A stretch of 64,000 bases of DNA, taken from positions 85,070,827-85,134,826 of the forward strand of contig CM060892.1 of the NCBI GenBank assembly GCA_030762935.1, read 5' to 3'. Positions 9,691 through 62,288 of the stretch are shown here, one piece after another. The notes beneath the pieces were generated by a model, which worked only from the letters and a program-made list of their open reading frames with translations, had not been told where the DNA came from and searched no databases. Position 1 is the first letter of the stretch. Each line of letters begins with the position of its first letter. Both the position numbers and the translations under genes were made by a program. The DNA comes from Hymenopus coronatus. Lineage: Eukaryota > Arthropoda > Insecta > Mantodea > Hymenopodidae.

Positions 9691-9692
9691 TT

Positions 9693-10553: not shown

Positions 10554-10564
10554 ATTTTTTATAT

Positions 10565-21525: not shown

Positions 21526-21669
21526 ATGCCATCATTTATGTCTTCAAGCACTGCAGTGGAAACTGCAATGAAGGATTATGACAAACATGGATGTCTGCAT
21601 GATATGTTCATTGCACAAGCTAAACGTTCTCCTAATAATATTGCTGTTGTCACACATGATGGGAATAAG
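21526..21669 (+). CDS. NRPS-like gene exon 1 (residues 1-48)
   Basis: 144 bases, ending in aataag before gtaatc (phase 0). The start ATG at 21526 follows tttttcag directly, so either a non-coding exon lies upstream or the 5' UTR reads through. A second in-frame ATG occurs at codon 5. It encodes the start of the adenylation domain ([19 protein letters not shown]), which suggests that little or no protein is missing N-terminally. Confidence 0.85.
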
Positions 21670-23377
21670 GTAATCAAAAAAGCAATAATTTTTACCATTG
21701 GCTGCATGCAACAAAAAAAGCTTGTGAACTGCCTTAAATGAAACTATAATGATGCTAAAAACTTGTTATAGAACCTAATTGGTTTAGAATCTTTTTTTGA
21801 ACTAAGGTTCTCTAATACTTGATTATCAGAGTAGGTGTGATGAGTTAATTGAAAAGGATTTGGCAGTAGATAATGTTAATGGACATAACTGTGAAGGCTG
21901 CATCTAAGCATATAAAAATAATAATTGTGATCTGGATAAAATGTTGCTTATCCAATACATAAACAAACAAATAAAACCAGTTTTTTAATTCAAGGATTTG
22001 ATTAAATAAATGAATAAATTGGAATACTTTTAACAGTGTTAGTATTAAGTATAGCACCAATTAATTATGCTAGGAAGCACTGCTGAAATTATTTTGTTGA
22101 ATCAGGAAGTTTTTAAAAATGCCATATTTTGTGTTTCTCATTTTGTAGAAATTAATAAATAATAATGATGAGAATTTTAGTTATTGTTTTGCTTACTTTA
22201 TGAAAGATTTTACACATTACTTACCATAATTTTTAGCTGTGCTCTTAAACTACTGCAGTAATTTTTTGGTTTCACATCATTATTAGGTGACTTATGCAGA
22301 GCTGGACAAAATGACTGAACTTCTGGCTGCTAGACTGAGACAACTGGGGGTCACTCGTAACACAGTGGTGGGTATTCTCATGGATCGCTGCCTGGAGTAT
22401 GTCATCTCGTATATTGCTATTCTTCGTGCAGGTACATTTTTGCTAATGATGTTATACATATTTTCTCTCTACAAAAGTTTATTTTGGTAAACTATGCTTA
22501 AAGTCATAATCATCTTTCTCACTTTTGCCATTTCATATTGTCTTTGTTTTTGTTCTTTTTCATGACAACATTTCCAAGCTCAGCAGAACTGTATTATTCG
22601 CATTATTTATAAATTATTTAGATAGAAATTTTATCACTCTCTCTATCACTCACAGCCCTTCGTTTTATGCCAAGGCCACAATTGCCTTATATGCATATTG
22701 GCCAAGATGGCATTTACCTTGGTATTATGACACTGAACAGAAGTGGTGCAAAACTTTTCAACGGTATGTTTATCAGCAGTGAGCTGTTTCAGTTGTTGCT
22801 TAGTCTTTGTGTTGTGAAGTGTTTTGACATTACATATGTTGTGTGTGATTTCCTTAGGAATGTTATTCTCTTATTAGTCCATGGAAATGCCTGCCACCAA
22901 ATTCATGCCTGAACAGCATAGTTTTATGTACAACACATACATGAAAACTGGATCATAAAGCAAGGTATGCAGTTTCAGCAGCAATTTCCTGTTTATTAGT
23001 TCTGGATAGATACATTGTGAGATGCTTGTCCAATAAATTTATAACAACATATTCACTAAACACTAAACCAAAGAAGTGAAAACAACATGTCCTAACAAAG
23101 GAAAAGCTAGAATTGGTGCTGCATTTGAATACTCACCTAAGAAGCATCGCAGCCATGTTGCATAGCAAGTGGGTGTTTCACAAACCTCTCATACAGTATT
23201 TAAACAGTATACAGTATTTAAACTTTTAAAACTGAAACCCTACTATGTGAATATAGTGCAGAAATTATGAATATTATGCAAGAAGAAGCAATACATGTGA
23301 ATGATAATTTCATCCAATGATGTCAAGAGCATTTTCATGCAGATGAACATCACTTATAACAAGTATAGTATTAATTT

Positions 23378-23416
<39 letters not shown>

Positions 23417-25500: not shown

Positions 25501-25541
<41 letters not shown>

Positions 25542-28500
25542 CAACAACAATTGATTATTGATTATTACTGTCAATAGACCTAAAATACAAATTTCTGACA
25601 TTGTTAATGGTATATATACGAGTATGTACATATAATGATTAACATTCTTTCAGTTATAAATTTTGTAACTCTTTAGATTATGCACAAAATAACTTCCTTT
25701 ATGATTTGTTATGTACTGTGAGTACTTATTATAGAATAGAATATCAAATCTTTAATACTTCAATCATTATCAGAAAATCTCATATTTATATCTTCACTAT
25801 AATAGTTGTCCTACCCTCTAGCATCATAGAAACATAAGTTACTGTTTTCATCACTCAGTATTGCAAGATATATATTACAGATAACTGTCCAAATTTACTA
25901 CTTATAAAGATATCTCTGTACGATCCCTCTTTTTAGGCCATAATATATACATCTCTAACATCTTTTTATATAATTGCAAATGCCACCCTTCCCCTCAAGC
26001 TTTCAGTCATAACTTAATTTTTATCTGCAACATCAGTCCTACATGACTACTTATTATTTTCACAGAACATGTATATGTTGGTTAACTGTATGTATTGGTA
26101 TTCAATAAATAAACTCGAGAAAAGACATATATGGTGAAAAAATAAGATTGGTTTTAGTGAAAGATAAAAACTGTAAAAGAATAAATGTTCAATACTTCAG
26201 GATTACTGCTTTATCAGAAGATAAAAATATAAGTAAGACTGACAGACGGTCCTATAGGATGGTTGACTGCATTGGTTAATTATCAGCTTTACTACAGGGA
26301 ATAGGACATATAATAGACATCTTCCAACTGTGACTGTGGGAGATCTATTATGATTTTCACTCAACTACCCAAGAGAAAGGAATAAAGACTATTAGTAGCT
26401 TGAAACACTCCTGTTTATAAACGTGATACTTATTGTTGAACACCTGATGCACAGAACGTATTGTCAATTATCATAAGTGAGCATCACATCCAAACATCAA
26501 CTCTGGCACTTAATCACCAGTTTCGTAACAAAATGTTTCCAGAAAGTTGCTAGAATTTAAGAATGATTTGTAATTCCGTCCTGTTTGAAGTTTTTTAAAA
26601 TTTATTTTTACATTTATACCATGCTCCTATCAGCAGTATTTCCCTTTGGAAGGGAATGGTGTTAACTTGTGTACAATGTCATTGGATTTCTGTTTATCTT
26701 TAATTTTAATCATAAATCACACTCAAATCCATACTTCCACACTCTGGGGAGGATAGGGAATAATCTGGATTAGAGAAAAATCCGTAACCACGGCTAGGAA
26801 TCAAACCCAGGACCCCTCCACAGCAGTCAGGTGTTCTACTGCCTGAGCTACAGGGCTAGCTCAAATGTCTTATTCATGTTTCAAGATTTGTCTGTCCTGG
26901 AGAATGGCATTTCTTGACCCCTCCTTGAGCAGTCCTAATAATTACTGTTAAATGCCTTTTAACATGTATACAATAACTGATATTTTTGCATACAAAATCA
27001 ATGTGACCTTTCATCAACATATACTCCAGGAAGTTATTACTATCAACCTTTTCGATACTTGAGTATGCGGTAAGTAGAGAATTCCTGGATAATGTCTTCA
27101 AGTGTCTCAAAGGTTTTGAACTGACATCCACAATGAAACTGGATATGACAATATTTTCACTCTTAGAAAGTGTAAACTGTTTTAACTTCAGGTAGTTCTT
27201 GATTATTCTACTAATTCCTACTTCCTTTGCAAATTAAATTTAGAAAGAATGAGATCTTAAGCCTGTATAAGATAATTTCTTACATAATTATAATAATTTA
27301 TTTGCGTGCTAAGTTCAATTCAATGGTGGCAGTCTCTTGTGACCTAGGCTATTATCCTAGTATGCCATCAATCTCCATTTATTACTAAATTATCTGTAAA
27401 ATAAAATTAGTTCACAATGTGCTCTCACTAATTAAAACCTATCTATTTGCTTTGTCCATTTGACCTTAACTTTCTATTGGAGTTGCCCTAAATCTCTTAG
27501 CTGCTCTTGGTCCTTGAAGATCTTCTTTATCCCTACTTCATTATCTCTCCCTAACCACTTCTGTTTAATCAACTTCACTCTCCATTCACTCGCTTTACAT
27601 TTAAACTTTATGTGCAGTTCATCCAGCTCCTCCCCACAAATTGACAAATCCATGCCTCACTCCTCATCTCAAACCTTTAAACTTCATACCCTTAGTTGGA
27701 ACCCTGATCTTTCATTTCTATTGCAAACTTTAAGATATTCTTCCTTTCTTAGATTTCCTTCACCTTTGTTATACCATTGCAATGATTTTTCCCCCTCATC
27801 TGTGCCTGTAGATTTGCCTATCCATATCCTCCAATATAATCTGTATAACACATTAAAGCCATTATAATTTACATTTAGGTGGAGCATATCTGCCTCTTGA
27901 AATATCTTATCCACCAGCCCTGCTTGCTTCTGTGCTGGAAGATGCTGAACCAATTGTAGTATGCAGCAAGACTCCATATCAAGAGCGGCTATCATCTTCT
28001 TTGACTTTGATCAGTCTGGACCAGACATGGAAACAACAGATTCAAGAGTTAGTGAAAGCTTCACCCGTTCCAGAAAATCCTTCTGTATCACTAGATGATA
28101 TGGCATACACAGTGTATTCATCTGGTACTACTGGAAAACCCAAAGGTTAAGAAATTTTTACTATTAGTTAAGTAACTCTTTATATTGTTTTTCACTTAAA
28201 TATGTACAGAAATCTATCATTCTTTGCATACAGATTAAGTATGCTAACAATGAATAATTATAGGGCAAGACGCCAAACTGATCATTTTAGATAATGGAGT
28301 CCATTCACAAAAGTGCAAGTTTCATACCATGGGACACCAAATTATAATGGCTTCAGATAAGCCAACAGCAAGCAATTCATATTTTGGCAAACAAACCTGT
28401 ATTGACTGCCTCTGTAATCAAGTGGTCAGTATGCTGGCTTTTCAGTCCAGAGGTCACAAAATCATTTCACAGCTGGGGTAGGGAAATTTTTCTTTAAACA

Positions 28501-31500
28501 CCTTTAATCTTCAAATAACTCTTTCTGTAGAATCAGCCTTTCTGAGACATCCATTATTTATAAATTTGAATTTTGCAATACCTTGTTATTCTTTTTAAAG
28601 TGCTTATCACCATTCTGTTATTTCTTGTCATGGAAAGTGTATGGAATTTTAAGGTCTGCATATAGTGACATTTAAATATTGCTATGGGTGGATAGTCCCC
28701 CTTGTATTTACAATCAAATGTATAATGAAACTATTTTTGTAAAATGTTATTTGGTTAACATGAAGTACATATAAAAAAACCTGAGAAATAAGTAGTCATT
28801 TGAGCAGGTAACTGCCATTTTCCCTATTACCTGAAAGCTAAGGCAGGTTTATTGATCACAAAAGAGAAGAATCCTGCTTGTTTTCATGACATATGCTTGC
28901 TAAGAACACCCTTTGAGGTATGAGTATGCAGGCATCATACCATGTTTCGTGCACTGCCTGATCTCAAAAAGATGTAATTTTCAGTGTTGCATAAAAACAT
29001 ATCTAAATGTGCTTCGAAGCTACAACATCAAAATTCAGACTAATTCAAGTACAAGCTATAAGACTTTTATATTCATTTGTTGTTGTTTTGAAATAACTTG
29101 TAAATTCCTCTCCATGATATAATTGCTATTGCATTTCATTAAATTCAAATCTAAGCCTCATTAATATCCTTAAATTTTATTTTAGGCATCCAATGCCCAC
29201 ATCGTGGTGCTGTATTTTCTTATTATTGGAGACATGTTGCTTACCCTTATAAAGAAGGTGAAAGAGAGGCATGCAATGTGTTTTTTGTTTGGGAAATGCT
29301 TCGCCCACTCATCAAAGGTAAGTTATATATCTTATAATCGTTAGCAATTAAAGCTACTTTATTTGCATGTACATTGTAACTGTTTTGCTTCTTAGGATTT
29401 CTTAAGATTAACGACTGTATAATTTTTAATATATCTACAACAATATACCAGTCTTGTACATTGTGCACTACATTAATAATAAATGAAAATAATTTGTTTT
29501 GTGTTTCCTTTTTTTGGAGATGAAAACAGGAAATGAACTTTTGCTTAGTTACCTAATTATTAATATAACTTTCAACAAGTAATTCATATTTCTGATTTCT
29601 TAAAAGATGAAATAATGACTAATCAAATAAAAAAACATACAAATTAATAAGAGAATTAAAAATCTGTAAGTGTCATTAAATTTGTTATTCCCCATAGAGT
29701 CTGCAACCTTTGAGGTATCTTGTTTCACTACGCAATGACTTAGCATAATTTAATTGGAATTTCCTGCAGATGACACCCATTAATTAGAATGGTACAATAA
29801 GGAGGCAAGAATTCATTATTGATTTAGAATATTTTACTTGAGGTAACTGAAAGTAAAGGTCTGATTCAGAGCAATTTTAAATTGCCATCCCAGATTCACT
29901 GATCCTCACTGCTATTCAAAATAATTGATCTACCAAACTGAGAGTAAAAGTATAATATTTATTTTGTATTTGTGTTTGTTTCATCTATAAAAAGTAATAC
30001 TCCTACATACACCAATTTAAAATACAAGGAAAAAATATACCAAGATGCATAAAAGATTAAAAATACAGAGATATAAGATTCATTAAAAATTTAAAATATA
30101 AATGAAACAATACAATGGTACTAAATAAGACTAGATATAATTGGATTGTAAAATAGTTATTTACAGATGTACAAATTTAAGTTTTCCTTTTGTTGTAATT
30201 TATTTATTTGTTTTCCAGCTACCATTTTCTGGGTTAATTATTTAAAAAGTTATTGAAGCTTTGTAAAAACAAGTGGAAGAATAGCTCAATAAAGAAGAAA
30301 ATTAAGAATATCCTTAACTCTAAGACCTGTTTCAATAAAATATTTATCAACCAGGTTCAAGCATGAAAATCCTGAACCTACAACCAGAGAATCACAATCT
30401 CTTCACAATCAATTGGTATTTATGGCTGAAGTTGCTATATGCAGAGTGTGGTTTTGAGAAAAAACCAATTGAAAATTATATTCAACAAAGATTGCTCCTC
30501 TTATCTAAAATGTAAATTTAAAAATAAAATAAAACAAAAATAATTTAATTAAAACATTATTTCTGATAATGCTACAAAATACTATATCTATATGTATGTA
30601 TACTTTTATTTCTAAAATTGAGATTATTATTAGATTATGCGATTCAGTTATTTTATGTTATATATATATATATATATATTAAATGTATATTATAACATAA
30701 AATACCTGAATAGCATAATCTATAATAAAATACATTTTAGGAAAAAGAAAACATGACAAAGCTTATCACCATCTTCTACATGTCAGTTATTGTTCTACTG
30801 ATAGTCTAAATCTCTAAGGGAATTAAAATGACATGAATTGTGTACATTATTACCCTCATGATGTTTTAGTATTTCTCTATTTGCATATCAGAGAATAGAA
30901 TTTTGCAGGGTTAATTATTTAAAATATTATAATTAAAGAAAAAGTACTATGTGCACACCTTTTCTTGGTTTCTAGTTTTATGGCAATGGTGGAAGAAGAC
31001 AGAGCCCATCCACCTGTCTTTCTGCAGTATTGCCAATCAAAGAAAGCTTCTTTCTTTGAGGTCCTCACCATTATAGTGAATAGGTTATTTAATTTACTGC
31101 AAACTACCTGAATTAGTGAACAAAACAACAAACGTGCATCTGCATGAACTCTGGGATCCAGATAGAATGGAACCTTAGCATTGAAGCCACTAGATATTAG
31201 GATGTATAGCTTACTTCATAATTCATGTCTCAATGTTGTCACTCCCCTCTGCTTCTGAAATTATGTGAAACTTACCGAATGAAGATTAGGAAGTACCCAA
31301 GAAAAGGTGCACATATAGTAGTCTAAAATCCAAGCAAGAATTATTAATGTAACAACATTTTGAACTTCTGAAAATAATTTATATTATACCAAATTTATTT
31401 CAAATTAGCTTCTTAAATGCATAGACTTTATGTTATATTCCTTACATTATTAAATCCTCATCATTGCTTTTTTACACTTATTTTAGGAATGGAACTGCAT

Positions 31501-44393: not shown

Positions 44394-44431
<38 letters not shown>

Positions 44432-50368: not shown

Positions 50369-50405
<37 letters not shown>

Positions 50406-51656: not shown

Positions 51657-51692
<36 letters not shown>

Positions 51693-54600
51693 CTATCATA
51701 CTATTTCAGGCAGTAGAAACAGCCCTACTAGATCTTCCCATGGTGCAAGCTGGCTGTGTCTTAGCTCAGGGAGAGGAAGGTTCAGACAAGTTCCTTGTTG
51801 CCTATATTGTGGCAAAAGGTAAAACTTCACGTAAAGAAGTTAGAGCAGCTCTCAAAAAACGTCTACCTTTTTATATGATACCATCAAAATTTATATTCCT
51901 TAACAGGTAAAACATTTTATTATTTTGAGAGCTAAGAAAGCATACTGACATGTAGAATGCACAATTTTTCTATTGCTATTGCATTAACTGTGAAGGTTCT
52001 TCTCTTTTTCTTTCTATCTGTGTGTCATATATGCTCTTGTAAGGCTAAAAAACACTGTTTTTCATGTGTTAGAAAAAACTGTAACATAAGCAATAGGTTT
52101 ACATCATACGAGTTTGAGCCTGTCTTTAATGCTTATTCCATAATAGCCAAAAAACCACTATACTAGATCCATAATAGTAATGCATGACATTAACTGTCTT
52201 TATATATATAACAAATGGTAGTAAAAGAGTGGTGTAAGCTCTTAAATAACAGAATTTGTCCTGTGATACCAGAATGCACCAGCAGAAAAAGGTGAAGCAC
52301 AGTCTTAAATGATTATGTGTTGAACCTCCACATAATTTTAACAAAATATATTAGCTACTTATTTTCTAGCTGGTACTGCAAAACTGAATATTATTGATAG
52401 AAATAGTAAAATCTTAAAATTGAAAATTAAAAACACTTTAAAAGCTTGACAAAGACTAGTTTCTGGGAACTTCCCTCCTATCACAGTTTTTTCATGGACT
52501 GATGCTCTCATGTAGCATAACCCAGCATAGGGTTCCTCCAGGGATCACGCTACCATGTATTCTCTTTGTAAATTGATAAAGTAATGTGCTCAAAGTTGAT
52601 GAGGTTTTCTTTATGCCTTGTAAAAGGGCATTATACCAGATGTTTAATTCCAAAGGCTTCTTCACATGTTTTATTAGTTTTATCTCCAGTTCAATGTTAT
52701 GATCTTCTTCCAAAAATGATAAGCTATGGCAGACTTGTTTCTGTATTTAAATTTTATATTTCTCATATGTCCTTTTTCCAAATTTCTCTTTGTTTTTCCC
52801 AATATATGTTTTGCAGTCTTGGTAGTTCATTTGGCAAACATCAGTTAATTTTATTTTTGGAGTACTATTTTTCAAAGATGATGTAATACATTTTTGATTT
52901 TTCATTAATTTTGTTGTATTTTAATTGAGTTGATATTAAAAACACTTTAAAATCCCCATAACAAGAAGGCTTCTAGAAACTAGTCTTTTTTTAAAATGTG
53001 GTATGTAATGGAGATTTTCTTTTTTTAAAATGTGGCATGTAATGGAGGTTCTAACTTCTTTTTTTTTTATATATAATTTCAGCTTAAGTTTAAGATTTTA
53101 TTACAATGATGATCCACTGTATAAAATACTTCTTAATGGTTATTTATAGAATTTCTGTTACTTTTATAACAGTGTTTTGAGCAGGAATTTTATTTCCTGC
53201 TTGTGATATATGTATGTGCTTATTGATTTTTGAGCGGGCAGTACTTCCAGAATACAATAGGCAGAGGAGGGCATAATCTAAATTTGAGCATTCAACAGGT
53301 TAGAAAAATTAATTGCTTCTATAAATTTCAACAAATTTTATAATTTTGTATCAATTTGGTATCATAAACAAAAACACATATTTTGGCATGAAAATACAAG
53401 TATGACAAAAATTAAACACTTCAAAAAATAATAAATGCTGGTTTGTACCCTCCTTTAAAACTATGGTTATCTGCTGGTTAGTTTTTTATGCGTAATTATT
53501 TGTTTAAGGGCAGCGCCATGGCCTAGTGGTTAGACTACTCGCCTCCCATCTAGGTGGCCCAGGTTCAATCCCAAGCACCCAAATGTGGGATTTATGTTGG
53601 ATGAAGTGGTATCTGGATGGGTTTTCTCTGGATCCTCCGGTTTCTCCCATCACTCAAATCCACCAATTGCTCCATCTTCAACTTTTCTATTATCCGTTTC
53701 GCTTGCATTTCATCATTCACTTCCTCACACTCATGTCTGGCTACTAGCCCGACCTCTTGTTCCAGGTTCTCCATTCTGTGGTTTTGTGCTGTTGGCTCCC
53801 TGGCAGGCTTCTGAACCCTAGGCCTTCACTTGTAAGCCCTAGAGGGTGTCAGTCTTAACTAGGGAGAGAGTAAACCACTACAAACAATTTACTTGTTCAA
53901 ATGGAAAATGGAGTGTATGTGCATTCATATGTTTTAATACAATTGGAAGTTTTTGGTGTTCACTTAATTATTAACAAAGACTTTAGGCACAAAGCAGCAG
54001 ACTAGTAAACCTCTGCATGCTTGTTGCATCACATTTTTCACTTTCTAATACTTTCTTAGTAAAATAAGACAGTATTATTCTCTTCACTTATAAAGAAAAA
54101 CTATTGCATACAAACTCTGGAAGTACACTTGCACATACACTACACGCATAAAATAAAATTCTTCCTCATAACACTGTTTAATAAAATAATGAAACTCTAC
54201 AAATAATATTCAATTTTGCAGTAGGTACAAGTTATAGTATTAGCAGCTAATAATTTTTTGCCAAAATAATTTCAGAGGTTTAGTCATAATCCAAACTATG
54301 AAGGGGGTGAAAAGAATCTATGAATGGACATCAGCCTTGTCTGCCTGTTGTATTTTGGTATCACTGTACCCCAATATGCCATCATGGTGAATCAAACTAT
54401 TTATTGTCTTATCAATAGAGAATTTTGTCTGTATTGTTGGCATTAAACCACCTTGTCATGCAAACCCAACAATTTAATAATCTGGTGTGTTGTTTTTATA
54501 GCATTCCAATTTTGGAATCCTCAGGAAAGCTAGACAAAAAGTCTCTTCCAAAGACCACAGATTTAAATGAAGATCATGCCATAGATCCACAGGATCTACC

Positions 54601-57600
54601 ATCTACTCCCATGGAACATAAAATAGCAAATATCTGGTGTCGGGTACTCAAACTTAAGGCGATTGATGTTCAGGAGAACTTTTTTGAGCTTGGAGGGTAA
54701 AAATTTACTTATTTATTACTTTATAAAATATTTTATGCATGTGGCCGAACCAATCACAATTGCAAAATAAATGCTTTTAAATTTCTATTTATCATTTTTG
54801 CAGCAAAGTGTTGCCAAATAAATCCATCTATTGAAAGCATAGAACTTAAATAAGTCTAAAAAAGGGGAGAAAGTAGGTAATTTTGATAGAATCCTTAATG
54901 TTTCAGACACTCACTGCTTGCTACTCGCCTGTTAAGTGAGATGAACCAAGATTTAGGACTGGATCTTGCCATTCTGGACTTATTCCAACATCCTACACTA
55001 TCTTCTATGGCCAGCTTCATTGAAAACCCCAGCTCCACCAATGGTTCTGATAGTGTTAAGCTTGACCTACTTGCTGAAGTAGATAGGCATGATCAGGGAA
55101 AGGCTTTAATGGACATTCGCTTACGAGCATTTTGGCGTTCATTCCAACTCTCTAACACTAAATGGCGAAGAGATAAAGTACTCTTGACTGGCGTCACAGG
55201 ATATGTTGGGGCATTCATTCTTAAAGAACTTCTGCAGACTACTAAGGTAAGTACATAAATTTGGAGATACTATTTACTTTAGTGTTTACTGAATCTAATA
55301 TAATGACTGTAAGTTTCTATTACTGAAGAAGCAAAGAAGAAACTAAAGCAATCATGTTCATTAATATTGTCCTCTGTGTCAATATCCTGGTTTTGTTAAT
55401 CTTTGAAGTTAGCATTGGTAGTACAAACATGGCAAAAATGCCTTCTTTCAAATCCCAGCGCAATAGACAGATTATATTTCTTTACCCCTGTGGTCTAAAG
55501 CTAACATGCTATCCTCAGGTTACAAAGGTTGCAGGTTTAAGCTGGCAGTGGTTAATTGAATTTTTTTTTCAGGTTTAAAAATCTTTAATAGAAGGGAAGT
55601 AAAGCTAGTGGTCCCGTAGCATAGATTTACGGCACATAAAAGAACCTCAAGCCTGATAAACAGGAGTCTGAGAAAAGTTAAGCAGTCTTTCATGCCCAAA
55701 ATAGAATAGAATGCTGAGAACCTCAGCAGTTTTAGAGCATCCATGAATAAAACTCAATTTCAATTTTTCACCTAGCAACATGCATAACACAAATAAAAAT
55801 CAGATAGATTGCCATTCATATTGGTGGGAGTTAAAATGTAATTATGAAACAGTTTTTCACCCTTTGTATAGGATAAAGACAGTAAGAACCAACTTAAGGG
55901 AAGGTTGAACCATACCATTGCCCAGGGTAGCAGGTTTTAGGGGTAGTAAAATTATAGAACATGAACAAGATATGTACACATCTGATGTGTTATACTTCCA
56001 TGACTTTCTCAACTTATTTTGCATCAAACTATACTTACAAAAACTTAAATTTTAACTACTTCATGCTAATCAAAATGAACATAAGCAGAAACGGTCTTAT
56101 CACTTATTTCCTTGTAGGTATATGGGAAATAAGGGAATACATTAAGCTAAAGCAATAATCAAATCATTTATGAGCATATTACTATGTGATAGTAATTGAA
56201 ATTAATTTTTTTTTGCATAGTAGGAGTAAAAACAAAGATTGAGGACTTCCTATATGAGGAAAGTATAATTATTGGAAAATTTAAACTAATAATAAAAATA
56301 TCTTGGAAATGCTTAACTCCACAAAAAAAAATGTAATTGACATACATTATGTTTTCGACAAAATCTACATATGTATAGTACATTTTTGTCCATCTCTTTC
56401 AGTTTACCAGTTATGCAAAGGCCATCCAGAATGAATAGCAGTTCATACACCATTTCCAGAAAATTCAAGATGCGCATTTCATTTGTCTGAAAATATCTTA
56501 AACATATTATATCATTGAAGCTATTTTTGAGAAAAATCTAAATTTTTGAAAATATTCCCTGTAAAGGGCAGTTGGAAGTTTTATATTTGCGTGCCTATTC
56601 ATTTTTGAGTTATACTCCACACACCACAGGTATCCCTCGGAAATAAGAACACATTTGCTGTAGACAAAAGGATGGGAATTTGCCAAAGAACATTACCACT
56701 CTAAACATTCAGTTGCTTCCTAATTGAAAAGCACATCATGAGGGTTTAAAATAGAAAACAGTTTCTCAACATTAGAAAGCATTGGCAAGTAAACTAATAA
56801 CAATCTGAACAAATATTCAGACAGTGAGCTATTAGTGACTGAAATTTTTGTACCTAATTTAACCCCTCAGTACTTTTGAAACTTGCTTGCACATGTAAAA
56901 AGAGTTTCCAAGCATTATTGTGATTGCAAAATACTTTTCTTTACAGACTACTGTATACTGCTTGGTGCGCATGATGCCAGGTTTGGCTCCAATGGAACGG
57001 ATTCGACAAGCACTTATACATTTTGGTATCAGTAATTCAGAAACTGATGACCTGGCTCAGCAGTTAGACTGGAGAGTGATTCCTGTCAATGGTAGGAGTC
57101 CAACACATAACTATTTGACTTACATTTGTTAAAGTAAAATAAATTTGTTTCTAATGACTTATTTTACTCTCTCTGCATTACTATGTACATAGAGCATAAA
57201 GAAGGTATTGTATTGCACCCAAAAATGTGATACCAAGATTTCACAAGAAATATATGTTTTGAAACCCCCTGAATCCAAAAAAAGCATTTTTAGAAAAATG
57301 TGTGCTGTGTGTGTGTATGCTTCCGTGCGTGTGTGTGTGTGTGCATAGCTCAAAAACAAAATGCCTGTTAAATACCAAACTTGGTATTTAAATTCAGTAT
57401 CTTTCAAGGATGCGACAAAAAGATTTTTGAGAAAATCCCCCCCCTCCCAATTACCCTTTATATGGAAAAATGTTTTGAAAATTTTGATTTTCTTATAAAT
57501 GGCTCTAACAATTTTAATAAAATATTGTATATTAAAGATATTTACATAACAAATAAAATGTATATTTTGAATTTTCTAGGAATAAGCTCTGAAGACATCT

Positions 57601-60600
57601 TTATTCTGGATGAATTTTATGGAATTTTGCATAACTGGTAAACCGTAAAAGATAGACAAAAATTTACTTCACAAAATATATATATATATATATATTTTTC
57701 ATGGAGTTGACCATTTTTGAGATATCCCTTGTTACTGGTTTCAGTTTTAAAATACTTATAATTTTCTCATACGGGAATTTGTCAACTCCTGGCCATACAG
57801 ACAAAGCAATTTCAATCACATAGCAACCAGCTTTTAAAAGATTTGACTATTGTTAGCCTATGGTACTGCCTTATTTCCTCTTCTATTTACAAGGAAGCAA
57901 GCAATAAGACCATTTCTACTAATTTTCTATCATTTAGCATGAAATAAATAAAAGAATAACTTTTTAATAATAATTTGTTGCAGGGTGTAGAGAAAGTCAT
58001 GTGATTGAACACATCATATTTTTTAAATTTGGATTATATAACATAATATGCAGTCTATAGTTGATGTAACTGAGCGGAGTTAATTTCTTTGATAATCAGT
58101 TAATTAAGAGCTTAAGACAGTACTCTGTGAATGCAGATAGTATAACTGTTATCTGCCAGACTGTGGTTCTGGTCCAATAAATCCTGATCTTGTGTGCTGT
58201 GAGCATTTATTAGATATTAGACACAAGAGATTAAATAACTGTTATAATTTATTGTCTGCAATGAGAGACACTGAAATTGTACAGGGCTTTACTTTGAGTA
58301 ATTTCATTGCTCTGTGGACTGATGCCCTCAAATTCCTGAGCTGTCCTAAATGTCTCAAAGATTTTCTAGAACTACCTTCCAAGGCAGAACCAATTTTGCC
58401 AAGTTTGTCCTCAATAAGGACACAATTTTTGTCTAATTTTTCCATTCCAATTCTTATTTCATACAAATGTTTTTTTAAGATGTAATGCTCACAGTATGAA
58501 TAAACAACTATGCTATAGTATGAACACATGTAAATACACACAATGTCTCCAAGGTCTACTTTCACACTGAGTGTGTCTAACTTTTAGCAGAAGAAGGAAT
58601 ACTTGAAGCTGGAAATGCATGATATCTGCCAAGCACATACAATATGTGAGGCTGGGAGTTGTTATATTAGATCCACAGACTGGTATATACTTTATCCCAT
58701 CAATGGTCACTAGGACATACTGTACAATATTCATATTTTTACTTTCTCTACATTTACTATGTACATAGTGTATAGAGATGGTACTGTATTGCACCCAAAA
58801 ATTTGATAAGATTTCACCAGAAATACATATTTTGAGACCTTCTGATAAAAAAAAGAAATAGTATTTTTAGAAACATGTCCATTTGTGTATGTGCACATAG
58901 CTGAATAATGAAAATTAAGTTAAGTGTTTTCTAAGGATACGATACAAAGATTTTCAAGAAAATCCCCCCACCTTAAACTACCCTTTACATGGAGCATTTT
59001 TCGAAAATTTTAATTTTCTCAAAAATAGCTTAACGCTAATGACTAAAATACCTTATGGTTTAGACATTTTTATGACAAATTAAATTTATATCTTGAATTT
59101 TCTGGGAATAGCCTCTGAAGATCTCTTCATTGAATGGCTTTTGTGTAACTGACAAAAACTTGCTGCACAAAAAATGTAGACCTATTAAAACACACAATTA
59201 TGTTATATACATTTTTTTTTTTGTAGTTAACCTTTTTCTAAATATTCTGGAGTATTGGTTTCAATTTTAAGCTACTTAAACTTTTTCCAGTGAGAAGACA
59301 TCTTTCTTCTCATTTCTCATTTGTTTACTCCTGGCAAGCAAAGAGAATGGAATTTCAATTGTTTTTTCACATAGTGACCACTTTTAAAGGACTAGACTAT
59401 CGCTTTAGCCTGCGCATTCCCTTATTTCCCTTCCACTTACATGGAAGCTAGTATTAAGACCAAGTCTGCTTATGTTTACCTTGATTAACATGATGAAGAT
59501 AAAAGATTACTCTTTTGGATAAAAGGTTTGTTGCCAAACAGCTAGAGACAGTCATGTGAATGGAACACACCAGATTTTCCCCTTCTACTTACAAGGAACC
59601 AAGTAATAAGGACAATTTCTGCTAATAATTATGTTGATTATCATGAAGTAGATAGAAGAATACACTTTTTAACAGAATTGTTACAGAAATGTAGAGAAAG
59701 TCATGTGATCGGAACACATCAGATTTATTACTAATTGTTGTATGTCAGACTTTGAAATGTTGTACTATAGAACAAACCCCAATGGCATTTCATCCTAGAA
59801 TGAACGCTGAGCATGTAATGATATCAAATGTCACCTAGACAGACAGTGTGATGAAGAAAAGTCCTTAAGGTTTGTCCTGAAGTATACTATTACTAATTTA
59901 TATATAAAATAGATATGCTGAAAAAATAGGTTGCTATACAGTTTCTGATTTGTACTCATTAATAAATCATAGATATGCCAGTTTTCCATTTTATTTACTG
60001 TTTCTCTAACAAGAGGTTGCAATGGAAATTTCTGAAATAACAATAAAAACTTATGGAAAAAATCTTCTAAGTTGAATAAATTAACATGTTTATGACAATT
60101 TTTAGGTGATATAACTCTTCTGAATCTTGGAATGAGTGAAGATGATTACATGTATCTTTCTTATGAGGTTGATTCAATTATCCATGCTGCTGCAAAAGTG
60201 AACCTAATATATCCATACAGAGCATTGCACAGCACAAATGTGTTGGGAACAGAAAATATTATAAATTTTGCTTTGGAGCATAAGATCAAACCAGTACATC
60301 ATATTAGGTAAGGAAAAAACTGCTCTTGTTTATTCATATCTGCTCTTTCTACTCATTGTATCTTTTATGCAAATTAAAAATTCTTTCACACAAATATTTT
60401 GTATTCAACTTCATTTCACAACAACGATTTACACAATTTTTTTTAATTTATTTACATTGTTGTGAAATGACAGTTGAATACAAATTATTTGTATGAAAGA
60501 ATTTGTTAATAGCTGATGTACTTCTTGTATTTCTATTATGTTTAATTGATTTGTCAGTATTTTTGTTTGTTATATTATTCCTATTGTATATAGAACCAAA

Positions 60601-62288
60601 CTGGTAATATCTAATAGATTTATGTAATCTCTATGGACAATAAATTGAAATTTCACATTATGCTTAAATTAACATCTTTTGTGGTTGATGAGAAGTAGGG
60701 TCTCAAGTTGGTCTTAGACTAGGAAGGGAGTGGATATTGAGCAGTTTTACATATTATTGAAATAATTTATATGTTTTATTTCTAGCTTTTTCTACTAGAT
60801 AAGTAAGTAGGGGAAGTAATGTATTCTGCCAAAAAATTTGATACCAAGACTTCATTGGAAATACATTTTTTGATACTCCCTGAATTAAAAAGAAACAAAA
60901 CAAAAAGAAAACATCTTTAAAAAATATCCCTGTGAACAGTATAACTCAAAAACATAAAGATGGTTAAATATCAAACTTGATATTTAACCTCAGTATCTAC
61001 CTTAAGATGTAAGCAACAAATATTTAGCAAAAACCCCCCACACTAAGCTACCCTTTATATGGAATATTTTTTAAAATGTTCATTTTCTCAAAATGGCTGT
61101 TAATGATTTTGATTAAAATACTATATTTTAAAGATTTTACATAAAAAAAAATTATATTTTGAATTTTCTAGGTGTAGCCCAAGAAGTCCACTTTATTTGG
61201 AAAGAATTTTGTGAGACTGGCAAATGTTAAGCAATACACCAAAAAGTATTGCACAAAAAGTGTAAATCTCTTTAAAACACTCAATTTGTTAAATATCTTT
61301 TTGGTACCTTAAGCCATTTCTGAGATATCTGTTGTTAATTGATTAAATTGTTCATTTTTTCAAAGGCCTTTTGACGTTCGGTTGTTTTTCAGATTAAGAT
61401 AGGTTTCTAAGCCCATTATAAACAGTGTCCAATAGCCCAGACTATTGCTCCTCTCTTTGTATCAATAATGAAATGTGTACTTTAGCCATTTCTGCAAAAG
61501 TTTAGCTATGAAACTGAAATAGATAGAAATATAAACTTTTGTAAGAATTATTTGTATACCTACTAATAAATATAGAGGGGATAAAGAACACATCAGGATT
61601 TTTGTTTTTTCTGAACTGCTAATTTTATTATTTTATATAAAATTTTTTTCATTAATTTAATTTTTAATTTTTATGCTTAAAAAATGTGTACCATAAATAA
61701 TAATTTATGTTCTGATTTTGGGTAAGTTTGTGTAAAATGAGCTTCTAATAGTGAAGCAGGGACAGATTGAAGGTTTGAGGTGGACTCAAATATATCTCTT
61801 TTAAACAAAATGCATTTTTTAAAGTACATATATTGGAAGCCACAACACCACTGCTACCATCTCTATGATCACCACTTTCATCACCATTACTATTAAAATG
61901 CAAAATGTGTGTCTTTTGAAAAAATCATCAAAATTAATTCAGAAGGAAAAGGTTCTATGATTGTATGCTCTCTGAGAGCATGCTCTCTGTTAATAAGTTT
62001 TCAATAAATCAATAGATTTTTACTTCAATTATGTCCCTTTTATTGCTTTTTTATTTTGGTTTAAATTATAGTACCTACAGGAAATCATGGACTTTTTTTA
62101 AATGTTTAAATTCTCTCTTCATACAGCACTGATGCAGTATTTCCTGAAGGAATGTTAGCCTGCTCAGAAGATGCTAATATGTCAGCTTATGCTAGCAACC
62201 TAGACAGTGGCTATTCTCAGTCAAAATGGGTAGCAGAACAGCTTGTCTTGCGAGCTCGAGATAGAGGGCTGCCAGTAGCAATTTACAG
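21526..62288 (+). CDS. NRPS-like A-T-R enzyme (adenylation, carrier, thioester reductase), 14 exons visible, 3' end missing
   Basis: Single-module nonribosomal-peptide-synthetase-like enzyme of 856 visible residues. Adenylation domain, about 1-520: [10 protein letters not shown] around 95, the ATP-binding P-loop [11 protein letters not shown] at 176-186, YRTGDWG at 409-415, [16 protein letters not shown] at 428-443 and the catalytic lysine in GKLDKKSLP at 518. Carrier domain, about 540-620: FFELGGHSLL, with Ser576 (codon 54911-54913) as the phosphopantetheine site. Reductase domain from about 660: NAD(P)-binding TGVTGYVG at 668-675, a STDAVF strand at 803-808 and the short-chain-dehydrogenase pair Tyr832/Lys836 in GYSQSK. 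In known A-T-R enzymes (Lys2, carboxylic acid reductases, fungal NRPS-like reductases) an acid is adenylated, tethered and reduced to aldehyde or alcohol. No condensation domain is seen before the A domain. It is not Ebony, whose C-terminus is not a reductase. It needs a 4'-phosphopantetheinyl transferase to be active. The substrate cannot be read with certainty. Confidence 0.93.
21670..22286 (+). other. Intron 1 (617 bp), no inserted element recognised
   Basis: Bounded by gtaatc and attattag. It is AT-rich, with no repeat or frame I can identify. Confidence 0.75.
22287..22431 (+). CDS. NRPS-like gene exon 2 (residues 49-97 start)
   Basis: 145 bases, acceptor tattag, donor g|gtacat, phase 1. 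It encodes [20 protein letters not shown] and ILRAG, core regions A1 and the first half of A2 of adenylation domains. Confidence 0.93.
23561..23752. repeat. Long hairpin: inverted repeat with 92-bp arms and 8-bp loop
   Basis: The left arm (23561-23652) and right arm (23661-23752) are reverse complements with only about a dozen mismatches, separated by ttagttcc. Each arm carries the same open stretch ([18 protein letters not shown] on one strand, a close variant on the other). This resembles, weakly, the region after the GIY-YIG domain in Penelope-like elements, so an inverted duplication of such an element is a possible origin. Transcribed as part of intron 2, it would fold into a near-perfect stem. 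Confidence 0.9.
25497..25550. repeat. (AAT)n/(AAC)n microsatellite
   Basis: About 14 AAT units passing into AAC units. Confidence 0.95.
26700..26865 (-). mobile_element. tRNA-derived SINE
   Basis: Minus strand: A box tagctcaggcagtagaac and B box ggtttgattcc with normal spacing, then the tail running toward 26700. It is a different subfamily from the SINE at 8613. The boxes are good, but the 3' extension and loss of acceptor-stem pairing argue against a working tRNA gene. Confidence 0.7.
27879..28145 (+). CDS. NRPS-like gene exon 3 (residues 97-185)
   Basis: 267 bases, acceptor catttag, donor aaag|gttaag, phase 1. It completes core A2 (GGAYLPLE) and ends with core A3, the P-loop ([10 protein letters not shown]), at its 3' edge. 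The intron splits the last Gly of the loop. Confidence 0.96.
28146..29185 (+). other. Intron 3 (1040 bp), with a possible old SINE at 28405-28560
   Basis: The stretch at 28405-28560 (gcctctgtaatcaagtggtc, followed by cagtccagaggtcac) resembles a worn tRNA-type SINE head, but the B box is poor. Nothing else is recognised. Confidence 0.5.
29186..29317 (+). CDS. NRPS-like gene exon 4 (residues 186-229)
   Basis: 132 bases, acceptor ttttag, donor aaag|gtaagt, phase 1. It encodes IQCPHRGAV and the core A4 region ([15 protein letters not shown]). In standard adenylation numbering the residue aligned with the amino-group-binding Asp235 is Val217 here. Confidence 0.95.
29318..31486 (+). other. Intron 4 (2169 bp)
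   Basis: Contains a small hairpin element at 30631-30722. The remainder is AT-rich with no gene or recognised repeat. Confidence 0.75.
30631..30722. repeat. Small hairpin (MITE-like), 32-bp arms around a TA tract
   Basis: Arms 30631-30662 and 30691-30722 pair at 30 of 32 positions and enclose an AT-alternating loop. The size and structure resemble a miniature inverted-repeat element, but no target duplication is evident. Confidence 0.75.
31487..31652 (+). CDS. NRPS-like gene exon 5 (residues 230-284)
   Basis: 166 bases, acceptor ttttag, donor ag|gtatgt, phase 2. It encodes [19 protein letters not shown] and the [15 protein letters not shown] stretch, which form part of the substrate pocket (Ser264 aligns with pocket position 278). 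Confidence 0.95.
32007..32705 (+). repeat. Family X repeat, copy 12 (3' truncated)
   Basis: Starts actttctgtactacatacct. Modules gatttcactggaaatacg, a GT-rich microsatellite slot (32164-32205), ctaccctttacatac and ctcaaaagtctc follow in order. It stops after the taaagcctag module. Confidence 0.75.
34010..34330 (+). mobile_element. Scrap of a non-LTR retrotransposon reverse transcriptase
   Basis: Plus-strand translation gives [20 protein letters not shown] followed by KAIHCIK and a worn ESCKTYFKE segment in a shifted frame. This is the region downstream of the RT palm in arthropod non-LTR elements (usual form YHSHLRYGI..WG, then LQKKAIR). Stops and frame changes show that it is dead. Confidence 0.6.
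34971..35174. mobile_element. Foldback/MITE-like element with about 67-bp inverted arms
   Basis: Left arm 34971-35038 and right arm 35108-35174 are reverse complements over most of their length (shared core aattaaagctctattgta), separated by about 70 bp. There is no coding capacity. The outer ends run into A/T tracts, so a target duplication cannot be fixed. Confidence 0.8.
36162..36286 (+). CDS. NRPS-like gene exon 6 (residues 285-326)
   Basis: 125 bases, acceptor gtcacag, donor tcag|gtaaga. The first of two overlapping AGs must be used to keep frame. It encodes LWFCGEVMT (core A5 start) and [14 protein letters not shown], equivalent to the YGPTE core, with the conserved Glu319 kept. Confidence 0.95.
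37440..37530 (+). repeat. Family X repeat, copy 13 (5' end only)
   Basis: A 90-bp piece with a well-preserved start, actttctctacacgtactat, followed by tagtgaatagggaag and an altered aagattttacc module. Confidence 0.75.
38153..38399 (+). mobile_element. tRNA-derived SINE with poly-A tail
   Basis: tRNA-like head (gtagtgtagtgatagcatg, then gagttcaaatctca as B box), a roughly 150-bp body ending taggacgttaagct, and 13 A. The flanks agttagtttt (before) and ggtagtttta (after) are similar and may be the target duplication. The 3' gacgttaa motif is shared with the SINE at 8613. Confidence 0.8.
38850..39855 (-). pseudogene. Decayed transposable-element gene (DDE-like protein with CGGQNRN / GHSYLP motifs)
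   Basis: The minus-strand translation from about 39850 leftward shows, in order: [95 protein letters not shown] and [14 protein letters not shown]. This order is typical of a transposase-like protein (usual motifs W..N..GRG.NEV, SDG..GQNRN, GHS..P.DR.F) present in many copies in arthropod genomes. I do not assign a superfamily. The reading frame from about 39500 to 38887 is kept apart from one in-frame TAG just after the GHSYLP region. Another stop follows LQQVKPLP, and upstream the frame breaks near the T/A run at about 39600. Confidence 0.65.
39943..40852 (+). repeat. Family X repeat, copy 14, with a roughly 100-bp foreign insert
   Basis: Starts ttactttctctatacttact and ends gttagataaagtcatacg. 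The region between the hairpin and the GT slot is deleted, and GT units sit at about 39987-40000. A GC-richer block at about 40436-40545 (cacccctcacagccagtatt) interrupts the family order. Confidence 0.75.
41520..42265 (+). mobile_element. Penelope-like element fragment: RT thumb remnant and GIY-YIG endonuclease domain
   Basis: The plus-strand translation at 41520-41715 gives [20 protein letters not shown], typical of the segment after the reverse transcriptase core in Penelope-like elements. After frame breaks, 41905-42260 encodes [20 protein letters not shown], then [10 protein letters not shown] and an [10 protein letters not shown] tail. This is the linker and GIY-YIG nuclease domain with its characteristic Tyr-Ile-Gly and Arg. 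The nuclease portion is open to a TGA at 42258-42260. The reverse transcriptase core upstream is missing, so the copy is 5' truncated. Confidence 0.75.
42290..43815. other. Intronic stretch, no feature recognised
   Basis: AT-rich. The short open frame at 43199-43408 shows no domain and no splice-site context suggesting an exon. Confidence 0.5.
43819..43857. repeat. (GTT)n(CAT)n(TAT)n simple repeat just before exon 7
   Basis: Compound trinucleotide repeat ending 22 bases upstream of the exon 7 acceptor, overlapping the expected branch-point region. Confidence 0.9.
43880..44010 (+). CDS. NRPS-like gene exon 7 (residues 327-370)
   Basis: 131 bases, acceptor tttgcag, donor gag|gtatgt, phase 0. 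It encodes [19 protein letters not shown] and GVPGE, the core A6 region linking the two adenylation subdomains. Confidence 0.95.
44340..44545 (-). repeat. Family X repeat fragment with a 33-base A run
   Basis: Minus-oriented piece recognised by gcaatagtcagat, cggttaattccac and gtagtaagattttgtctgtc. The family's short A tract has grown to an uninterrupted A run at 44396-44428. Confidence 0.65.
45345..45695 (-). mobile_element. tRNA-derived SINE, about 340 bp
   Basis: On the minus strand the head is gagtggttagactgctcgcc, then gggttcgatccca (B box), followed by a body shared with the SINE at 53508-53880 (caattgctccatc, ggttctccattctgtggttt, tgtaagtcctaggg). The two are oppositely oriented copies of one family. 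Confidence 0.85.
46140..47400 (-). mobile_element. Ty3/gypsy-type retroelement remnant (Gag zinc knuckles and protease)
   Basis: GC-richer than its surroundings and read on the minus strand. Three Gag-type CCHC knuckles occur in tandem: [14 protein letters not shown] (47150-47191), a second of the form [13 protein letters not shown] with a frameshift (46956-46996), and [14 protein letters not shown] (46882-46923). Further on, [12 protein letters not shown] at about 46715-46745 carries the aspartic-protease D-T-G signature, and the segment [10 protein letters not shown]...ATVDIGRK, in a shifted frame, matches the second half of retroviral-type proteases. Frames break repeatedly. No reverse transcriptase, integrase or LTR was identified, so only the gag-pro part survives. 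Confidence 0.65.
47670..47888 (+). CDS. NRPS-like gene exon 8 (residues 371-443)
   Basis: 219 bases, acceptor tgtttag, donor cag|gtataa, phase 0 at both ends. It encodes [19 protein letters not shown], the core A7 motif YRTGDWG (Asp binding the ribose hydroxyls) and core A8 [16 protein letters not shown], the hinge of the C-terminal subdomain. Confidence 0.97.
48363..48479. repeat. CT-rich polypyrimidine tract, about 117 bases
   Basis: Almost uninterrupted C/T on the plus strand (CTCTCC, CCCTCC and TCTC units with rare A), so the complement is all-purine. Such tracts can form triplex DNA when supercoiled and resemble strong splice-acceptor pyrimidine runs, although no exon follows. Confidence 0.9.
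48689..49510 (-). repeat. Family X repeat, copy 16 (near full length)
   Basis: Minus-oriented, beginning with the end motif actttctctacatctctgct and finishing at the start hairpin (cactatgtatgtagtatgtg, then agataaagta). CA/CACG units in the slot lie at about 49338-49372. Confidence 0.85.
49662..50475 (-). repeat. Family X repeat, copy 17 (5' hairpin missing)
   Basis: Minus-oriented, with all modules from gtgtgttccattcacatg to the CA/CG slot (50370-50405) and tttccagtgaaatcttggtg. The terminal hairpin is absent. Confidence 0.8.
51455..51600 (+). mobile_element. tRNA-derived SINE (third subfamily)
   Basis: Head cacggtagagcagtggtcag, B-box-like ggctcaaatccca, body ending with cacgactggtgtgaaataaa and an A/T-rich tail. 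The B box is intact enough to identify it, but the fold is not that of a working tRNA. Confidence 0.65.
51656..51690. repeat. (ATT)n microsatellite abutting exon 9 acceptor
   Basis: About 12 uninterrupted ATT units ending 19 bases before exon 9, so the tract occupies the place where the branch point and pyrimidine run of the acceptor should be. Confidence 0.95.
51710..51906 (+). CDS. NRPS-like gene exon 9 (residues 444-508)
   Basis: 197 bases, acceptor atttcag, donor acag|gtaaaa, phase 2. It encodes [20 protein letters not shown] and [16 protein letters not shown], core A9 of the adenylation C-terminal subdomain. Confidence 0.95.
52444..52990 (-). mobile_element. Second Penelope-like fragment (GIY-YIG region)
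   Basis: The minus-strand translation from about 52840 leftward gives [20 protein letters not shown] and then [20 protein letters not shown]. These are the cysteine linker, the Tyr-Ile-Gly core and the following helix of Penelope-type GIY-YIG nucleases. At least one stop and a frame change interrupt it. The two flanks share an inverted motif (aaagactagtttct at about 52457, its complement at about 52974), and an exact 18-bp direct repeat, attaaaaacactttaaaa, lies at 52426-52443 and 52935-52952. Confidence 0.7.
53508..53880 (+). mobile_element. tRNA-derived SINE, same family as 45345-45695
   Basis: Head gcctagtggttagactactc and B box aggttcaatccca, then the shared body (ccaattgctccatcttc, ggttctccattctgtggttt, tgtaagccctagagg). 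It lies on the plus strand, the same strand as the gene. Short open frames across it are artefacts. Confidence 0.85.
54502..54696 (+). CDS. NRPS-like gene exon 10 (residues 509-573)
   Basis: 195 bases, acceptor tttatag, donor gagg|gtaaaa, phase 2. It encodes core A10 [12 protein letters not shown] with the catalytic Lys518, a Pro/Asp-rich linker, and the first helix of the carrier domain through ENFFELGG. Confidence 0.96.
54697..54906 (+). other. Intron 10 (210 bp, the shortest)
   Basis: Bounded by gtaaaa and gtttcag. It splits the carrier motif LGGHSLL between its two glycines and the His-Ser pair. No inserted element. Confidence 0.9.
54907..55246 (+). CDS. NRPS-like gene exon 11 (residues 574-687)
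   Basis: 340 bases, acceptor gtttcag, donor aag|gtaagt, phase 0. Residues [12 protein letters not shown] carry the phosphopantetheine attachment site Ser576. [16 protein letters not shown] completes the carrier domain. After a linker the reductase begins with [20 protein letters not shown], the Rossmann GxTGxxG nucleotide-binding loop. Confidence 0.97.
55247..56946 (+). other. Intron 11 (1700 bp); possible SINE at 55405-55755
   Basis: Besides family X copy 18, the stretch at 55405-55755 has a weak A box (tagcattggtagtac), a B-box-like tttcaaatccca and a motif gatttacggcacataaaaga that looks like a SINE body. I hold this only loosely. Confidence 0.5.
55981..56630 (-). repeat. Family X repeat, copy 18 (truncated)
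   Basis: Minus-oriented, with modules from tctgatgtgttatacttcca through gctaatcaaaatgaac, ggaaatgcttaactccac, ggcagttgg and tcatttttgagttata. It ends before the CA slot, so the microsatellite and hairpin are missing. Confidence 0.75.
56947..57091 (+). CDS. NRPS-like gene exon 12 (residues 688-735)
   Basis: 145 bases, acceptor tttacag, donor aatg|gtagga, phase 1. It encodes [20 protein letters not shown], the strand and Arg following the nucleotide-binding loop (NADPH phosphate contact in related reductases), and [10 protein letters not shown]. Confidence 0.95.
57163..58018 (+). repeat. Family X repeat, copy 19 (full length)
   Basis: Starts ttactctctctgcattacta and ends gggtgtagagaaagtcatgt, 856 bp with all modules. 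GT units in the slot at 57303-57345. A TA run at about 57675-57695 replaces part of the region before the catggagttgacc module. Confidence 0.85.
58740..59576 (+). repeat. Family X repeat, copy 20 (full length)
   Basis: Starts actttctctacatttactat and ends gctagagacagtcatgtgaa. The slot has only gtgtatgtgcac. The strong hairpin at the start (tttactatgtacatagtgta) is almost perfect. Confidence 0.85.
59577..59727 (+). repeat. Family X repeat, extra 3' end after copy 20
   Basis: Repeats only the last modules (cttctacttacaaggaacca, agaagaatacactttttaac, tgtagagaaagtcatgtgat). As after copy 3, the 3' terminus is present twice in a row. Confidence 0.75.
60106..60307 (+). CDS. NRPS-like gene exon 13 (residues 736-802)
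   Basis: 202 bases, acceptor tttttag, donor attag|gtaagg, phase 2. It encodes [28 protein letters not shown] (the extended-SDR HxAAxVN strand and turn) and [16 protein letters not shown], all conserved in thioester reductase domains. Confidence 0.96.
60380..60502. repeat. Small hairpin (MITE-like), about 45-bp arms
   Basis: Left arm 60380-60424 (attctttcacacaaatattt at its start) and right arm 60457-60502 are reverse complements with a few mismatches, around a roughly 32-bp T-rich loop. No coding capacity. Confidence 0.8.
60780..61602 (+). repeat. Family X repeat, copy 21 (diverged)
   Basis: Recognised by ttctagctttttctactaga, gataccaagacttcattgg, ctaccctttatatgg, ctcaaaatggctgttaatga and the end tatagaggggataaag. 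The slot lacks GT repeats. Confidence 0.7.
62127..62288 (+). CDS. NRPS-like gene exon 14 (residues 803-856, continues beyond)
   Basis: 162 bases, acceptor atacag, donor acag|gtaatt, phase 2. It encodes STDAVFPEG and [17 protein letters not shown] with the catalytic Tyr832 (62212-62214) and Lys836 (62224-62226), then LPVAIYR. In related enzymes a PGxI(S/T)G segment follows next. I find no such exon before the window ends, so the C-terminal part of the reductase and the stop codon lie outside. Confidence 0.95.

What the first reader, a model, noticed from the sequence alone, without database searches (positions are those of the whole stretch)
21526..62288. An NRPS-like A-T-R enzyme encoded in an animal genome, with at least 14 exons
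Seen: 14 exons with matching phases and canonical GT-AG borders, encoding adenylation core motifs, a carrier Ser and a reductase with GxTGxxG and Y-x3-K. Known: A-T-R enzymes are common in bacteria and fungi but uncommon in animals, where the familiar cases are Ebony and the AASDH-like proteins with other C-termini. Inference: this may make a small aldehyde, alcohol or amine product of unknown role. The many introns and embedded repeats argue against bacterial contamination.
Basis: partly seen in the sequence, partly recalled or inferred. Interest (0 to 1): 0.78.

Follow-up and report, generated by a model that had tools for sequence, protein, structure and literature searches.

The report
Insect gene for betaine-to-choline reductase
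This stretch of insect DNA holds most of an intact gene for an enzyme that very probably turns the plant and cell solute glycine betaine back into the nutrient choline; the same gene occurs across many animal groups, so it is an under-described but not exotic gene.

Summary
Fourteen exons between 21526 and 62288 (+ strand) join with GT-AG borders and matching phases into 856 codons without a stop, encoding AMP-binding, AMP-binding_C, PP-binding and NAD_binding_4 domains. The interpretation needs three corrections. (1) The window's end cuts the gene: the closest relative runs 434 residues further, through the rest of the first reductase and a second SDR-type reductase, so the enzyme is most likely A-T-R1-R2, not A-T-R. 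(2) It is not rare in animals: the closest proteins are from katydids, crickets, locusts, stick insects and cockroaches (up to 73% identity), then many other animal phyla down to cnidarians and Trichoplax. (3) The product is predictable: sources name the sea anemone and abalone orthologs glycine betaine reductase ATRR, the A-domain pocket resembles that of fungal ATRR, and a nematode ortholog is tied by experiment to betaine and choline metabolism (PMC11050029). A tree gives one animal clade (100/99) and puts the window protein among polyneopteran insects; no recent bacterial or fungal transfer. New member of a known kind; activity of the insect enzyme is untested. The own-genome search did not complete, so the 3' exons were not seen.

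The parts
21526..21669 (+). exon 1 (residues 1-48); first ATG of the model; AG just before the ATG, so a 5' untranslated or short coding exon may lie upstream
22287..22431 (+). exon 2, adenylation domain
27879..28145 (+). exon 3, adenylation domain with SGTTGKPKG
29186..29317 (+). exon 4, adenylation domain, NVFFVWE pocket loop in place of the usual FDxS loop
31487..31652 (+). exon 5, adenylation domain
36162..36286 (+). exon 6, adenylation domain, [11 protein letters not shown] with pocket Asp322
43880..44010 (+). exon 7, adenylation domain
47670..47888 (+). exon 8, adenylation domain with YRTGD and [11 protein letters not shown]
51710..51906 (+). exon 9, adenylation C-terminal subdomain
54502..54696 (+). 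exon 10, A10 lysine K518 and start of carrier domain
54907..55246 (+). exon 11, carrier domain (S576) and start of R1 with GVTGYVG
56947..57091 (+). exon 12, R1 (least conserved exon)
60106..60307 (+). exon 13, R1
62127..62288 (+). exon 14, R1 with Y832-x3-K836; the rest of R1 and the expected R2 lie beyond the window

Best explanation
The gene is the polyneopteran-insect ortholog of ATRR, a four-domain A-T-R1-R2 glycine betaine reductase. Expected cycle: the A domain adenylates glycine betaine with ATP and loads it on the phosphopantetheine arm of the carrier serine (S576); R1 cuts the thioester with NADPH to free betaine aldehyde; R2, a short-chain dehydrogenase expected beyond the window, reduces that to choline. 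Shown here: exons, intact A, T and partial R1, orthology, pocket residues. Inferred: substrate, presence of R2 in this particular gene, cofactor, product and physiological role (recovering choline from dietary or internal betaine).
For: Domains; all 14 exons intact; nearest relatives are polyneopteran, 73% identity to Anabrus, and two animal proteins are source-named glycine betaine reductase ATRR or ATRR-like. R2 is present in 99 of 114 aligned proteins of that list and in Anabrus covers residues 1068-1309, matching a solved SDR. Nine pocket positions read V F W M W C L D I in the window against V F W L W N C E I in 58 of 77 later-list rows, which include Aspergillus spinulosporus and an Exophiala protein named Glycine betaine reductase ATRR; an acid stands at position 322 in 233 of 234 rows, the other being gapped there. 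Replacement of the D235 loop by a shorter hydrophobic loop plus an acid elsewhere is what a passage of PMC7496086 describes for ATRR-A. Nematode MiATRR lets yeast overcome growth inhibition by high betaine, and its silencing effects are intensified by betaine and eased by choline (PMC11050029). One animal clade at 100/99 and an insect clade at 100/95.
Against: Only 5 of 9 pocket residues are identical to the fungal code. A close pocket type (BurA) takes the sulfonium acid DMSP instead. R2 of this gene was not seen because the own-genome search did not complete. No insect ATRR activity was seen in the papers searched (listings). 15 of 114 listed proteins lack a full R2, among them two Capitella paralogs and, probably as partial predictions, two Timema and one Blattella protein, so substrate drift within the family is possible. 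The fungal branch groups with two bacterial proteins, not directly with animals.
Confidence: 0.78

Rival explanations
1. Same enzyme family, other charged acid: the A domain prefers another betaine or a sulfonium acid such as DMSP, and the product is the matching aldehyde or alcohol.
For: BurA-A shares pocket features of ATRR-A and is reported to be loaded with DMSP (PMC7496086, one passage and a figure legend); the window pocket differs from the fungal one at four of nine positions.
Against: The nematode ortholog behaves as a glycine betaine enzyme. Weakly: 9 of the 18 long bacterial proteins with a similar loop carry Asp at the position of window L314, where animals mostly have Leu and fungi Cys.
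Confidence: 0.1
2. A true animal A-T-R enzyme without R2, releasing an aldehyde for a secondary metabolite, as (recalled) in the animal-encoded bursatellin pathway.
For: The window itself shows only A-T-R; 15 of 114 listed relatives lack a full R2, all of them 989-1195 residues long and in part probably partial predictions; an animal nonribosomal bursatellin pathway is cited in PMC12833800 (passages; the bursatellin paper itself was not held).
Against: The full-length polyneopteran relatives Anabrus, Gryllus, Schistocerca, Diploptera and Periplaneta carry R2; the window protein falls inside that clade.
Confidence: 0.08
3. Non-functional copy (pseudogene or unexpressed relic).
For: No RNA evidence; 3' part unseen.
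Against: No stop in 856 codons where about 57 would be expected by chance; all splice borders intact; catalytic motifs conserved.
Confidence: 0.03
4. Recent horizontal transfer or contamination from bacteria or fungi.
For: Bacterial A-T-R proteins at about 41-42% identity exist.
Against: 13 introns, animal-wide distribution, single animal clade at 100/99, nearest neighbours polyneopteran.
Confidence: 0.01

Closest known systems
Uncharacterized polyneopteran orthologs (Anabrus simplex P0001, Gryllus longicercus P0002, Schistocerca nitens P0004)
   Same: 69-73% identity over 98-100% of the window protein, same A-T-R1 order
   Different: Their R2 is seen; the window's is not. No specific function assigned by the sources
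Fungal glycine betaine reductase ATRR (Aspergillus; here P0162 A. spinulosporus, P0203 Exophiala)
   Same: A-T-R1-R2; D235 loop replaced, acid in pocket, five of nine pocket residues identical
   Different: about 41-42% identity; the window has M for L, C for N, L for C and D for E in the pocket
Nematode MiATRR (PMC11050029; database relative P0105)
   Same: animal ATRR; 47.7% identity of P0105 to the window protein; experimental link to betaine and choline
   Different: plant parasite; role in insects unknown
Animal bursatellin pathway (cited in PMC12833800; primary paper not held)
   Same: animal-encoded nonribosomal route (citation seen; A-T-R type recalled)
   Different: secondary metabolite; its protein was not compared here
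Ebony and AASDH
   Same: animal A-T proteins (recalled)
   Different: other C-termini, no thioester reductase (recalled); not compared by tool

Membership tests
Glycine betaine reductase ATRR | Order A-T-R1 | tested here: met
   Pfam AMP-binding 30-383, AMP-binding_C 445-516, PP-binding 549-612, NAD_binding_4 667-856
Glycine betaine reductase ATRR | Second C-terminal SDR reductase R2 | tested here: inconclusive
   Beyond the window; 99 of 114 aligned listed relatives have it; own-genome search did not complete
Glycine betaine reductase ATRR | D235 loop replaced by a shorter hydrophobic loop, acidic residue elsewhere in the pocket | tested here: met
   NVFFVWE with a five-residue gap at this place in the first of two LgrA alignments; in the second the gap falls a little further on. 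Acid at 322 in 233 of 234 rows. Feature described in PMC7496086
Glycine betaine reductase ATRR | Pocket code of fungal ATRR | tested here: inconclusive
   Five of nine identical, two more conservative (L/M, E/D); the nematode paper reports five of its 10 identical to A. nidulans
Glycine betaine reductase ATRR | Same clade as animal sequences source-named ATRR | tested here: met
   Nematostella and Haliotis proteins named ATRR or ATRR-like lie in the same animal clade, 100/99
Glycine betaine reductase ATRR | Makes choline from glycine betaine with NADPH | not testable with these tools
   needs an enzyme assay
L-aminoadipate reductase (Lys2) | NCBIfam alpha_am_amid cut-off | tested here: not met
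   363 bits against a cut-off of 1030; caveat: the query lacks its last third
Bacterial carboxylic acid reductase (CAR) | NCBIfam carboxyl_red cut-off | tested here: not met
   152 bits against 1300; same caveat

The most novel reading that the evidence does not exclude
Polyneopteran and hemipteran insects, unlike insects in general as described in print, can regenerate choline from betaine with ATRR, so their dietary choline need can be met or spared by plant betaine; the listed hits suggest that Holometabola (and vertebrates) lost the gene. A hint from print: a gene labelled linear gramicidin synthase subunit D, a name that some orthologs here bear, is one of two genes that change with the host plant in both pea aphid biotypes tested (PMC6818229, one passage; its identity with ATRR was not tested).
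Probability: 0.4. Interest if true: 0.6.

Novelty: new member of a known kind. Interest (0 to 1): 0.36.

Why it matters
[quoted passage not shown] A conserved betaine-to-choline reductase in locusts, crickets, stick insects, cockroaches, termites, aphids and planthoppers would be a salvage route from a solute common in plants, in several lineages with crop pests. These genes are mostly labelled uncharacterized, linear gramicidin synthase or fatty acid synthase in the sources, which hides the probable function.

Tried and rejected
Rejected: Lys2 and bacterial CAR membership (far under the cut-offs, with the caveat that the query is cut short); recent horizontal transfer; a complete A-T-R gene inside the window (no match for P0001 residues 879-1312 better than E 1.6). 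Led nowhere: a Pfam scan of ten other long ORFs in and around the gene gave no family (the rest of the upstream 21 kb was not scanned); searches for print on insect ATRR (11 and 13 papers listed, titles and abstract starts seen; one of them, PMC6818229, was opened at one passage and mentions an aphid gene named linear gramicidin synthase subunit D, without a function) and on betaine and cockroach choline need (none); the two primary papers (fungal ATRR, PNAS 2019, title recalled; bursatellin pathway) are not held. A first exon model had exon 5 one base short and broke the frame; corrected. Structure prediction was not run: sequence evidence was enough. Rows dropped: one search read 20 of the 28 loci (L021-L028, 26-28% identity, left out); one search used 213 of 231 proteins (length 950-1500 aa; 114 of the 120 and 99), plus the window and 20 loci; one search used 59 rows chosen by me; one search used 47 of those 59, leaving out 12 that I judged long-branched or redundant. 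The mapping of pocket positions to the GrsA code rests on recalled GrsA numbering and is approximate at the shortened loop.

Full report
Observation. I rebuilt the gene from the raw sequence. Fourteen exons at 21526-21669, 22287-22431, 27879-28145, 29186-29317, 31487-31652, 36162-36286, 43880-44010, 47670-47888, 51710-51906, 54502-54696, 54907-55246, 56947-57091, 60106-60307 and 62127-62288 all have AG before and GT after, chain in phase, and give 856 codons with no stop. About 57 stops would be expected from the introns' triplets, and exon GC is 42.1% against 31.7% in introns. tblastn of the Anabrus simplex relative recovers the same 14 segments in order, each at E of 3.2e-11 or better; exon 12 is the weakest with other relatives.

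Anatomy. Pfam gives AMP-binding 30-383, AMP-binding_C 445-516, PP-binding 549-612 and NAD_binding_4 667-856, the last cut at profile position 202 of 258. Among the 114 aligned proteins of the list, K518 and S576 are present in 114 of 114, and Y832 and K836 in 112 of 114, the other two gapped. The reductase is truncated because the window ends: P0001 residues 879-1312 have no match in the window better than E 1.6.

Relatives. The best 120 of 6279 hits begin with Anabrus (73%), Gryllus (72%), Timema, Schistocerca (69%), Diploptera, Cryptotermes, Periplaneta and Blattella, then Ptychodera, Anneissia, Nematostella, molluscs, annelids, nemerteans, hemipterans, sea stars, Trichoplax, tunicates, a flatworm, an acoel and nematodes. 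The only beetle seen (Asbolus, P0121) is a protein of dehydrogenase domains without a listed AMP-binding domain. Sources name the Nematostella protein glycine betaine reductase ATRR and the Haliotis one ATRR-like. A search with the R2 region of the Hondaea protein brought fungal relatives, one named Glycine betaine reductase ATRR (Exophiala) and others from Aspergillus, 53-57% identical to the Hondaea R2; the animal R2s in the same list lie in the same range. R2 is therefore a shared part of the eukaryotic enzyme. It is present in 99 of the 114 aligned proteins; the 15 without a full R2 are 989-1195 residues long, in part probably partial predictions (two Timema, Blattella, a Nematostella isoform), in part perhaps true paralogs (two from Capitella). 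In Anabrus R2 spans 1068-1309 and matches a solved short-chain dehydrogenase.

Pocket. At nine positions (chosen from recalled GrsA numbering) the window reads V F W M W C L D I; 58 of 77 rows of the later list, mostly fungal, read V F W L W N C E I; the commonest among the 114 rows of the first list is V F W L W C L D V (31 of 114). The usual D235 loop is replaced (NVFFVWE; a gap falls there in the first LgrA alignment and a little further on in the second), and an acid stands at position 322 in 233 of 234 rows, the last being gapped. A passage of PMC7496086 describes these two features for ATRR-A, and notes that BurA-A, which is loaded with DMSP, shares them; this keeps a sulfonium substrate open as a rival. 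A bacterial genome scan found 28 loci; 20 were read, two of them 1056 and 1032 residues long (Rubrobacter and SAR202 MAGs), the other 18 about 1730-2550, some cut by the locus end. 9 of these 18 have Asp at the position of window L314.

Phylogeny. On 501 A-domain columns, a careful tree of 47 rows, rooted on five bacterial rows, gives all 30 animal rows as one group (100/99), 14 insects at 100/95, and the window protein in a set of eight polyneopteran rows at 96/86; its exact neighbour is not resolved (92/22), and the stick insect Bacillus rossius falls outside that set. The quick tree of 59 rows agrees on the animal group (97) and the insects (99), with the polyneopteran set at 88, not starred. 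Ichthyosporeans and stramenopiles group next to animals (100/98); fungi group with the two bacterial A-T-R proteins. Deep transfer events between these lineages are possible, but the insect gene is inherited within animals.

Function. PMC11050029 (abstract, passages and Discussion read) reports that nematode MiATRR, an A-T-R1-R2 protein, lets yeast overcome growth inhibition by high betaine, and that silencing effects are intensified by betaine and eased by choline; it cites fungal ATRR as reducing glycine betaine to choline through betaine aldehyde. The primary fungal paper is not held. A passage of PMC8877510 states that insects cannot synthesize choline. A passage of PMC6818229 reports that a pea aphid gene named linear gramicidin synthase subunit D is one of two genes lower in both biotypes on Vicia faba than on their own host plants; that name is also borne by some orthologs here, but I did not test that it is this gene. 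I commit to glycine betaine reductase with choline salvage as role (0.78 for the enzyme; the physiological role is weaker, 0.4). In the papers searched I saw no description of an insect betaine reductase (listings, one passage opened).

Verdict.

Noticed in passing
window 4-648, 4210-5074, 5437-6314, 9306-10564, 48683-49512, 49665-50472, 57162-58025, 58736-59730 and others: Old dispersed repeat matter of about 0.9 kb units, 65-76% alike in the longest self-matches, up to 16 overlapping matches, in 20 intervals that add to 11425 bases of upstream DNA and introns; none of the 20 overlaps an exon. Not identified.
   Followed up: partly
window 46212-47338, - strand: Intron 7 holds a GC-richer block with broken ORFs, one with a [14 protein letters not shown] zinc-knuckle-like string that looks gag-like by eye; no Pfam match for the two ORFs scanned.
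   Followed up: partly
window 41874-42257, + strand: A 128-residue ORF with [19 protein letters not shown], by eye like the GIY-YIG part of a Penelope-like element (recalled resemblance); no Pfam match.
   Followed up: partly
P0079 and P0096 (Capitella), P0116 (Mytilus): Extra animal paralogs of 989, 1030 and 937 residues without a full R2, the Mytilus one with FFPWE in place of FFVWE; possible A-T-R enzymes with other products (P0116 was too short for the count).
   Followed up: no
L002, L004-L018, L020: Bacterial proteins of about 1730-2550 residues (read stop to stop, some cut by the locus end) share the FFVWE/FLVWE loop and a pocket acid, in Desulfopila, Filomicrobium, Piscicoccus, Mesorhizobium, Sinorhizobium and others; they may load betaine-like or sulfonium acids.
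   Followed up: partly
L001 and L003: Rubrobacter and SAR202 MAG proteins of 1056 and 1032 residues group with fungal ATRR in the A-domain tree (100/100 and 100/93), hinting at an old exchange with the fungal line.
   Followed up: partly
P0121 (Asbolus verrucosus, beetle): Best hit of the R2-region search: a 2168-residue protein of dehydrogenase domains with no AMP-binding domain listed.
   Followed up: no
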